Shown piece after piece: positions 19,287 to 20,813 of a DNA stretch of 64,000 nt. The notes beneath the pieces were generated by a model, which was not told where the DNA came from, ran no database searches, and saw only the letters and a list, made by a program, of their open reading frames with translations. Made by a program: the position numbers and the translations under genes. This stretch comes from Pascua guehoae (Eukaryota > Basidiomycota > Tremellomycetes > Trichosporonales > Trichosporonaceae). Position 1 is the first letter of the stretch, and every line of letters starts with the position of its first letter. Location of the stretch: positions 812,116 to 876,115 of the forward strand of contig BCJX01000013.1 of the NCBI GenBank assembly GCA_001600415.1, written 5' to 3'.

Positions 19287-20813
19287 TTAGAGGTCGTCGT
19301 CCTGTGGTGTGTCAGTGGCGATTCCGTGTTCAAAGAGCGGCAAATCGTGCGCCAGAGCCCCAAAGCTACATGGCCTGCACTAGCACCACGACATACCTCG
19401 TCAGGGAGGGGAGCGGCAGCGGCCTGGTCGAGCTCCTGCTGGTACTTGGCCATGAGCTCGGGGTCGACCGAGACTTCAGGGGGAGCAAGTGCGGGGGCGG
19501 CGACAAACTCGAGCGACTGGTTGCCGACGAGCTTGCGTGCGAGCCAGAGGAAGGGCTTCTCGAAGTTGTAGTTGGACTTGGCCGAAATCTCGAAGTACTG
19601 GAGGTTCTCTGTGCACAGCGTCAGTAAAAGTGGAACAAGGGGTAAAAGCGTGACCGGCCGCGTGACGCACTCTTGCGGTGGAAGGTAACGTTGGCGGTCT
19701 TGACCTTGCGCTCCTTGACGTCGACCTTGTTGCCGCAGAGAACAATGGGAATGTTCTCGCAAACACGCTCGAGGTCACGGTGCCAGTTGGGGACGTTCTT
19801 GTAGGTGATACGCGAGGTAACGTCGAACATGATGATACCGCACTGGCCCTGGATGTAGTAGCCGTCACGGAGACCACCGAACTTCTCCTGTCCAGCGGTG
19901 TCCCAGACGTTGAAGCAGATGGTGCCCTGTGGGTGTTAGTAACGCGGTCGAGATGCGATCCACGACGATTCGAGACTGCGCATTGTACGCTGGTGCTTTG
20001 GGTTCGGGACGTCTCGAGCGATTGCTCGGTCCAGCCCGGCACCGGAGACGCCCGCAAAGAGGGAGAGTGTGTATAACCGCTGCGGGCAAGGGCACAGAAA
20101 CCATTCTCGCCAGCAGTCGATCCCCTCGTCCGCTCCGAGGCACTCTCGTGCCCTAGCACTCGCAAAATATAGCAACAGTCTCGAAGGCGCCGCGCAAGCG
20201 GAAATGATACGCACGAACGAGGTGTGGAAAACGAGGGGGTGGACCTCGACACCGAGGGTGGCTGGGACGTTAGTAAATCTTGTCTGGTGGTCCGGGGTCG
20301 GGGCCAAGTCGGCACAGTGTCGTCGAGCGACAGGGTCGATTCGGTTCAACGGAGAATGCGTCCCAGTGCAACAAGCGCATACGCACCAATGTACTTCTTC
20401 TCGAACTCGCCTGTCGGGGTCAGCATCAAGTCTTCGCGGCTGGGAATGGCAAGAGGCCATGGTGGTGGCAAAAGTTTGCGTGACACGAACCGGTAAGGTG
20501 GCGCTTGACGAAGGTGGTCTGAGCGGGTTAGCTCAAGTTTCTGCGAGATGGGGGCATTGCAGCAGCTCACCTTGCCTGTAGAGCAAAAGCAACGAGGGCA
20601 TTGTCAGCTATCCATCTCGAGCAGCGTTTGGCGTGGTCGAGGACATACCCTGCGAGGTTGGTCAGCATGGTTCGAAAGAGATCAAGTTGTGCCTTGAGCT
20701 GTTTGGGATTTGGGGGTGCTTCGCTTCCATGTGTGCTCGCGCGCACAGAGACTCACGGTACCACCGTCACCGCAGAGGACCATCTTGAAGGTCGCGACGT
20801 TTTCACCAGACAT
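19287..20813 (-). CDS. GSP1: Ran GTPase (Gsp1) with 1-nt and 5-nt exons
   Basis: Nine exons by eye: 20813-20757, 20649 (one base), 20575-20571, 20518-20491, 20410-20387, 20261-20215, 19926-19671, 19608-19397 and 19301-19287, totalling 645 nt for 214 residues, the normal Ran length. Motifs are complete: P-loop GDGGTGKTTF, the TLGVEVHPL effector region, [21 protein letters not shown] and the acidic DDDL tail. Ran drives nucleocytoplasmic transport and spindle assembly. The P-loop Gly-Lys codons (GGC AAG) are split as G plus GCAAG, each piece bounded by its own AG acceptor and GT donor. The three flanking introns have GCTGAC, GCTGAC and GCTAAC branch-point-like sequences. Without the single base the frame breaks. 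The start has an A-rich context, as in highly expressed genes. Confidence 0.92.

What the first reader, a model, noticed from the sequence alone, without database searches (positions are those of the whole stretch)
20571..20813. One-nucleotide exon followed by a five-nucleotide exon in the Ran GTPase P-loop
Seen: exon 1 ends GDGGT at 20757 before GTGAGT; exon 4 begins TTFVKRH at 20518. The missing Gly-Lys codons GGC AAG must come from between. The five bases GCAAG (20575-20571) are flanked by TACAG and GTGAGC, giving only part of the codons and the wrong frame. A single G at 20649 sits between CTCGCAG and GTATGT and completes GGC AAG exactly. The three introns around the two exons are 107, 73 and 52 nt, each with a branch-like GCTGAC/GCTAAC. 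Known: Ran needs GxxxxGKT to bind GTP, so losing these residues would kill an essential protein. A single-nucleotide exon has, to my recollection, been reported in an Arabidopsis gene; very few are known. Recursive splicing through the CAG|G|GT site is an alternative mechanism.
Basis: partly seen in the sequence, partly recalled or inferred. Interest (0 to 1): 0.93.

Follow-up and report, generated by a model that had tools for sequence, protein, structure and literature searches.

The report
One-nucleotide exon in Ran GTP-binding site
In a basidiomycete fungus, the gene for the essential protein Ran appears to need an exon one nucleotide long, followed by one of five, to write the two amino acids that hold GTP; such exons are known but rare, and several related fungi's public gene models leave these two amino acids out.

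Summary
On the minus strand Ran has nine coding exons of 57, 1, 5, 28, 24, 47, 256, 212 and 15 nt, giving a 214-aa Ran. Of 3,858 GT-AG chains with one to three introns across the P-loop, one keeps the frame and restores GxxxxGK[ST]: the chain with the 1-nt exon (20649) and 5-nt exon (20575-20571). One Ran locus was found in this genome. Annotated Ran models of Apiotrichum porosum, Trichosporon asahii and Kwoniella bestiolae read GDGGT-TTFVKRH, exactly the product of skipping both tiny exons; Cutaneotrichosporon cavernicola has intron-like residues there. A gene-blind scan for the same splice signature gave two further, weaker 1-nt exon candidates, in a Het-C gene and a DUF2838 gene. Single-nucleotide exons are already reported in plants and Fusarium and mentioned for Cryptococcus neoformans. 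This is a new member of a known kind, in a very conserved motif. No RNA, raw reads or relatives' DNA could be read; a one-base assembly error is the main rival.

The parts
20757..20813 (-). Ran coding exon 1 (57 nt), [19 protein letters not shown], ends phase 0
20650..20756 (-). intron 1 (107 nt), GTGAGT...CTGACCAACCTCGCAG; CTGAC at 20665-20661
20649..20649 (-). proposed 1-nt exon 2 (G), first base of the P-loop Gly codon
   Evidence: only GT-AG solution found
20576..20648 (-). intron 2 (73 nt), GTATGT...CTCTACAG; CTGAC at 20607-20603
20571..20575 (-). 5-nt exon 3 (GCAAG): the rest of Gly and all of Lys
20519..20570 (-). intron 3 (52 nt), GTGAGC...CTAACCCGCTCAG; CTAAC at 20531-20527
   Evidence: C. 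cavernicola model P0056 carries a translation (KADRAQ) compatible with the same intron tail (inference)
20491..20518 (-). exon 4 (28 nt), starts TTFVKRH
20387..20410 (-). exon 5 (24 nt)
20215..20261 (-). exon 6 (47 nt)
19671..19926 (-). exon 7 (256 nt), core of the G domain
19397..19608 (-). exon 8 (212 nt)
19287..19301 (-). exon 9 (15 nt), DDDL and stop

Best explanation
This is the Ran (GSP1) gene of a basidiomycete fungus close to the Trichosporonales/Tremellales. Its P-loop codons GGC AAG (Gly-Lys) are cut by three ordinary GT-AG introns into G | GCAAG, so exon 2 is one nucleotide and exon 3 is five. Shown by sequence: the anatomy, its uniqueness among GT-AG splice chains, and the loss of the motif without it. 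Inferred: the introns (107, 73 and 52 nt) are recognised one at a time by intron definition, because a 1-nt exon cannot hold the 3' and 5' splice-site complexes together. The most likely order is 5' to 3': removing intron 1 joins the G to exon 1 and creates the donor ACCG|GTATGT; removing intron 2 adds GCAAG; removing intron 3 adds exon 4. This is a recursive-splicing-like use of a freshly made donor, but with one base kept. Skipping the G shifts the frame; skipping both tiny exons keeps the frame but deletes Gly-Lys. The split P-loop is probably inherited from before the Trichosporonales/Tremellales separation; whether relatives divide the six bases as 1+5 is not known.
For: Exactly 1 of 3,858 GT-AG chains restores GxxxxGK[ST] in frame; 0 of 3,683 AT-AC chains, 0 of 100,655 chains with up to two introns and any of GT/GC/AT with AG/AC; only the same chain gives GDGGTGKT among 50,978 chains with GT or GC donors. 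All eight Ran introns in the model are GT-AG with a CTRAY motif and G at donor +5; +5 is G in 84% of 32 donors chosen by coding frame behind a branch-motif acceptor. Shuffles: 1 of 20,000 gives YAG|G|GTNNGT with adequate introns, 0 of 20,000 with branch motif. The spliced protein matches yeast Gsp1 (residues 5-212, 404.9 bits) and Ran of 1i2m (residues 3-214, 397.4 bits; that 1i2m is human Ran is recalled); Pfam Ras score is 159.5 bits with Gly-Lys against 145.0 without. One Ran locus was found in the genome. 208 of 216 collected proteins have GDGG[TV]GK[TS]; of the eight others, two read GDGGIGKT, two do not contain this part, three are Tremellomycete models reading GDGGT-TTFVKRH and one (C. 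cavernicola) has 11 intron-like residues in place of Gly-Lys. The three gap models equal, in this stretch, the skip-both product computed from this gene. The same signature found two more, weaker candidates in conserved genes.
Against: No RNA, cDNA or raw reads. No DNA from any relative could be read, so conservation of the 1+5 split is unknown; relatives could have one 6-nt exon. The genome shows no excess of the strict signature over its reversed control (14 against 17; 32 against 73 for the A/C/T form). A bare AG|G|GT is fairly common by genomic density (0.078 expected in 92 positions). Intron 6 of the same gene is 288 nt, so an unsplit 181-nt intron would not be abnormal. A poor self-trained matrix put the intron-1 acceptor at its 9th percentile. 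Naganishia (P0004) has Gly-Lys in its listed model, and Phaffia (P0188) passes the motif scan, so the difficulty is not universal in the class.
Confidence: 0.86

Rival explanations
1. Assembly error: one G is missing in front of GCAAG. The true gene has a simple 6-nt exon GGCAAG between a 181-nt and a 52-nt intron, and the CAG|G|GTATGT site is accidental.
For: One more G at TACAGGCAAGG would give TACAG|GGCAAG|GTGAGC with no 1-nt exon; relatives' models only show that Gly-Lys is hard to annotate, which a 6-nt exon explains equally well. Raw reads could not be checked, and the error rate of the assembly was not measured.
Against: It leaves a branch motif, acceptor, single G and donor, correctly spaced and supplying the right base, to chance (0 of 20,000 shuffles with branch motif, 1 of 20,000 without; though 153 of 20,000 for a bare AG|G|GT). 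The stretch is not a long homopolymer. Every other junction of the gene is in frame.
Confidence: 0.08
2. One 180-nt intron with non-canonical ends (GT-CA or TG-AG) yields the same mRNA.
For: With intron 3 fixed and the upstream intron's ends left free, 81 cuts give a P-loop-like product; six of them give the exact Ran sequence, among them GT-CA (20756-20577) and TG-AG (20755-20576).
Against: None of the six has GT-AG, GC-AG or AT-AC ends; the spliceosome would have to ignore the AG of CTACAG or the GTGAGT donor one base away.
Confidence: 0.03
3. The gene is broken or makes a Ran without Gly-Lys (skip both tiny exons), tolerated or used for regulation.
For: Public models of three relatives read exactly this way, and the frame is kept.
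Against: Only one Ran locus was found here, its remaining 212 residues are intact, and 210 of 216 collected proteins keep the GKT of the P-loop (208 as GDGG[TV]GK[TS], 2 as GDGGIGKT). Gly-Lys of the P-loop binds the phosphates (established knowledge), so such a protein should not bind GTP.
Confidence: 0.02
4. A zero-length recursive splice site rather than an exon: CTCGCAG and GTATGT only serve to remove a long intron in steps.
For: The AG-then-GT arrangement resembles a recursive site, and stepwise removal is the likely order in any case; [quoted passage not shown]
Against: If no base were kept, the frame would be lost and the P-loop destroyed (skip 1-nt). The G must be kept.
Confidence: 0.01

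Closest known systems
Arabidopsis APC11 single-nucleotide exon (PMC4674806; parts 1 and 2 of 3 read)
   Same: Constitutive 1-nt coding exon between two introns; frame is lost without it; upstream branch site; annotation was wrong.
   Different: There the exon is A and was proved by cDNA and mutant constructs; here it is G, sits in a P-loop, is followed by a 5-nt exon, and has no RNA proof.
Fusarium CYP621A one-nucleotide exon (PMC12940212; parts 1 and 2 of 3 read)
   Same: Fungal nuclear gene; AG|G|GT; supplies one base of a Gly codon in a conserved motif (PKG); found because exon phases did not match; an overlong intron hinted at it.
   Different: Shown in 20 Fusarium orthologues with 18 RNA reads; the G is the middle base of the codon; no second tiny exon beside it is described in what I read; a P450 of unknown function rather than an essential gene.
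C. neoformans exons 'as small as 1 bp' (PMC3990503; passages only)
   Same: Same fungal class, RNA-seq-based statement that 1-bp exons exist and are hard to find automatically.
   Different: The passages name no gene for the 1-bp exons; whether Ran is among them is not stated in the passages seen.
Plant 1-nt microexons of APC11 and VPS55 (PMC8831610; passages only)
   Same: Conserved 1-nt exons missing from reference annotations.
   Different: Plants, other genes, RNA-seq and RT-PCR proof.

Membership tests
Single-nucleotide exon of a spliceosomal gene | One base flanked by canonical AG and GT | tested here: met
   CTCGCAG|G|GTATGT at 20656-20643
Single-nucleotide exon of a spliceosomal gene | Base is required for frame and protein | tested here: met
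   Omission frameshifts after GDGGT; only GT-AG chain of 3,858 that restores the P-loop
Single-nucleotide exon of a spliceosomal gene | Base present in mature mRNA | not testable with these tools
   No RNA data held
Single-nucleotide exon of a spliceosomal gene | Both flanking introns have usable length and branch motif | tested here: met
   107 and 73 nt, CTGAC in each
Single-nucleotide exon of a spliceosomal gene | Conserved in orthologues | tested here: inconclusive
Ran GTPase | P-loop [25 protein letters not shown] motifs and acidic tail | tested here: met
   Spliced protein; near full-length match to Gsp1 and Ran
Recursive (zero-length) splice site | No base kept between AG and GT | tested here: not met
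   One base lies between AG and GT and must be kept for the frame

The most novel reading that the evidence does not exclude
One-nucleotide exons are a recurring and inherited part of gene structure in Tremellomycete fungi: the split Gly-Lys of Ran has survived since before Trichosporonales and Tremellales parted, and the same genome uses further 1-nt exons in its Het-C and DUF2838 (GPC1-like) genes. Their spliceosome would then routinely splice introns in turn through freshly made donor sites, without exon definition.
Probability: 0.4. Interest if true: 0.72.

Novelty: new member of a known kind. Interest (0 to 1): 0.62.

Why it matters
If true, an essential, very conserved motif depends on accurate splicing of a 1-nt and a 5-nt exon in a row, which is a natural test system for how the spliceosome handles exons too small to be 'defined'. 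It also shows that public Ran models of four Tremellomycetes lack the GTP-binding Gly-Lys, so annotation of such genomes needs a search for tiny exons, and it suggests a simple way to find them: motif first, then missing codons in conserved families.

Tried and rejected
Self-trained splice-site matrices: one search failed and one search was its debugging; the set of 100 introns was clearly contaminated by false long introns (median 209 nt), so its scores are not used. For the record they put the exon-2 donor at the 61st percentile and the intron-1 acceptor at the 9th, but the acceptors of introns 3 and 7 at the 1st. A smaller set, donors chosen by coding frame behind an acceptor with a branch motif (32 single-candidate donors), is used only for donor composition.

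Relatives' DNA: a scan of viral contigs found none; of genome contigs only a remote GTPase of a Helarchaeota MAG. The protein database is clustered at 90%, so further Tremellomycete models may be hidden inside clusters (120 rows shown of 7,885 and of 3,401, and only the 7,987 candidates sharing most words were scored). Named Tremellomycetes that I recognised in the two listings: six (Apiotrichum, Trichosporon, Cutaneotrichosporon, Kwoniella, Naganishia, Phaffia); four of these lack Gly-Lys. Many rows carry no species name. Order was looked up for Kwoniella, Naganishia, Cutaneotrichosporon and Apiotrichum; for Trichosporon and Phaffia it is recalled.

Genome-wide signature scan: 46 sites (14 with G, 32 with A, C or T). 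Examined 39 of 46: Ran, 17 read by eye and 21 by script only. Seven were not fetched. Three candidates (Ran, Het-C, DUF2838); the others that I read looked like ordinary exon ends or non-coding sequence, except L066, which is unresolved. The script is insensitive: its best chain was a wrong one for Ran, took a different acceptor for L044 and a wrong chain for L070, so the 21 script-only sites may hide further cases.

Papers: nine searches, of which 5 and 69 showed 20 of 61 and 20 of 213 papers. No paper on a 1-nt exon in Ran appeared in what was listed; searches returned 0. Mitochondrial 1-nt exons (placozoan cox1 PMC5436844; PMC12308204) were seen only as listings and concern another splicing system. 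Supplementary tables of PMC3990503 could not be read.

Full report
What was checked. The window's minus strand carries one Ran gene. Its coding exons are 20813-20757 (57 nt), 20649 (1), 20575-20571 (5), 20518-20491 (28), 20410-20387 (24), 20261-20215 (47), 19926-19671 (256), 19608-19397 (212) and 19301-19287 (15). They join to a 645-nt frame that encodes a 214-residue protein ending DEDDDL (first seven exons). The protein matches yeast Gsp1 (residues 5-212, 404.9 bits) and Ran of PDB entry 1i2m (residues 3-214, 397.4 bits; human by recall). All eight introns run GT to AG and have a CTRAY motif.

Is the 1-nt exon needed? I enumerated every chain of GT-AG introns of at least 30 nt between the start codon and the end of exon 4: 170 with one intron, 1,643 with two and 2,045 with three. 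Exactly one keeps an open frame and contains GxxxxGK[ST]; it is the chain with the single G at 20649 and GCAAG at 20575-20571. With introns of at least 40 nt and up to three introns, GT-AG gives that one of 2,128, AT-AC 0 of 3,683, and GT or GC donors 3 of 50,978; the two extra ones, which need GC donors, read GDGAQGKT and GDGGTVTQGKT and so do not restore Ran. If the ends of a single upstream intron are left free, with intron 3 fixed, 81 cuts reach a P-loop-like product; six give the exact Ran sequence, including GT-CA and TG-AG, and none of the six has a standard pair of ends. These are the non-canonical rival. Leaving out the G shifts the frame; leaving out both tiny exons keeps the frame and gives GDGGT-TTFVKRH.

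Chance. Shuffling the 181 nt between exon 1 and GCAAG, with dinucleotides kept, gives a bare AG|G|GT with both introns at least 45 nt in 153 of 20,000 cases, YAG|G|GTNNGT in 1 of 20,000 and the form with CTRAC in front in 0 of 20,000. By density in 264 kb of this genome, both strands, the expected numbers in 92 positions are 0.078, 0.003 and 0.0003. A bare AG|G|GT is thus unremarkable, the full signature is not. Shuffling the whole intronic stretch gives any GT-AG chain with an intact P-loop in 1 of 300. In the whole genome the strict G form occurs 14 times, 17 for the reversed control pattern, and the A/C/T form 32 times against 73. So the signature itself is not enriched genome-wide; what is unlikely is its presence at this place with the right base.

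Other evidence from this genome. The Ran protein finds one locus at high identity (three exon-level matches at 90-99%, all in this gene); the other eight of 11 matches are at most 37% identical. The Ras family search lists 41 exon-level matches. Both searches score only the best candidates.

Relatives. Of 216 proteins gathered in two searches, 208 have GDGG[TV]GK[TS]. The eight others are: Apiotrichum porosum P0008, Trichosporon asahii P0051 and Kwoniella bestiolae P0009, all reading GDGGT-TTFVKRH; Cutaneotrichosporon cavernicola P0056, reading [23 protein letters not shown]; two reading GDGGIGKT; and two that do not contain this part. The three gap models equal, in this stretch, the skip-both product of this gene. 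In P0056, KADRAQ can be written AAG GCT GAC CGC GCT CAG, a branch motif and acceptor very like the end of intron 3 here, GAGCTAACCCGCTCAG; this is inference from the protein alone. Apiotrichum and Cutaneotrichosporon are Trichosporonales and Kwoniella is in Tremellales. Naganishia (Filobasidiales) has Gly-Lys in its model. So the intron positions on both sides of Gly-Lys look older than the split of the two orders, and annotation failed there in four species. This supports one or more tiny exons in relatives, not specifically a 1+5 split.

Are there more? A motif-first scan, blind to genes, listed 14 sites with G and 32 with A, C or T; 39 of the 46 were examined, 21 of them only by an insensitive script (see Tried and rejected). 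Two besides Ran stand in conserved genes that lack exactly one base. In L044 a Het-C gene (Pfam PF07217) needs a G to write VKRVYF-G-NWLRDYS. Of 28,610 GT-AG chains with one to three introns of at least 42 nt, three give VKRVYFGNWLRDY and all three use the same 1-nt exon, CAG|G|GTACGT, differing only in the intron before. The alternative, a weak donor GTCGAT, inserts a Val and lowers the Pfam score from 280.0 to 273.4 bits. In L070 a DUF2838 gene (PF10998; GPC1-like is recalled) needs an A to write HYFLF-D-MCYFVN, with introns of 40 and 44 nt. The main alternative, one 81-nt intron from a weak donor GTACCA, inserts a Gly and lowers the score from 140.3 to 134.2 bits; with introns down to 30 nt three further open joins exist, all with extra residues. 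Both are weaker than Ran, since a one-residue insertion is conceivable. In a set of 32 donors chosen by coding frame, +5 is G in 84%, A in none and C in 9%, which disfavours both alternatives.

Mechanism. Shown: the anatomy, the uniqueness, the loss of the motif otherwise. Inferred: recognition of each intron as a unit, and removal in turn. The 3' splice site of intron 1 and the 5' splice site of intron 2 are one base apart, so their complexes cannot sit together; Guo and Liu argue similarly for APC11 and propose intron definition combined with recursive splicing. After intron 1 is removed, exon 1 ends ACCG and meets GTATGT, a usable donor.

Known or new. One-nucleotide exons are reported for Arabidopsis APC11 with cDNA and mutant constructs (PMC4674806), for plant APC11 and VPS55 (PMC8831610, passages), and for CYP621A of Fusarium with RNA reads (PMC12940212), whose authors call theirs the first for a fungal gene. 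The C. [quoted passage not shown] My searches listed no report for Ran. The finding is therefore a new member of a known kind. What stands out is the place (the P-loop of an essential GTPase), the second tiny exon beside it, and the matching gap in relatives' models.

Limits. No RNA, no raw reads, no DNA of a relative. A missing G in the assembly in front of GCAAG would turn the two tiny exons into one of six bases; the splice signals around 20649 make this unlikely but do not exclude it.

Noticed in passing
L044 (G000:C6:473700-474900), minus strand: Het-C family gene (PF07217) whose conserved VKRVYFGNWLRDYS was obtained only with a second 1-nt exon, CTGACCGTCGCAG|G|GTACGT, flanked by 43- and 104-nt introns; the rival join inserts a Val through a weak donor.
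   Followed up: partly
L070 (G000:C11:232250-233400), minus strand: DUF2838 (GPC1-like) gene with a possible 1-nt exon A, CTGACTCGCAG|A|GTGCGT, introns 40 and 44 nt, writing HYFLFDMCYFVN; the main rival is one 81-nt intron with a weak donor and an inserted Gly.
   Followed up: partly
L066 (G000:C9:460900-462050), plus strand, about 515-570: Site CTAACGGTATCAG|T|GTGAGT shortly after a coding stretch ending GATTATGACA|GTGAGT; may be another 1-nt exon or a gene end; not resolved.
   Followed up: no
window 19287-20813, minus strand: Ran has several other very small exons: 28, 24, 47 and a last one of 15 nt encoding only DDDL and stop.
   Followed up: yes
P0056 (Cutaneotrichosporon cavernicola Ran model): A second insertion, VPARVLTNQ, sits at the position of intron 6 of this gene (HT.F|G) and looks like another retained intron, so that public model seems wrong in two places.
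   Followed up: partly
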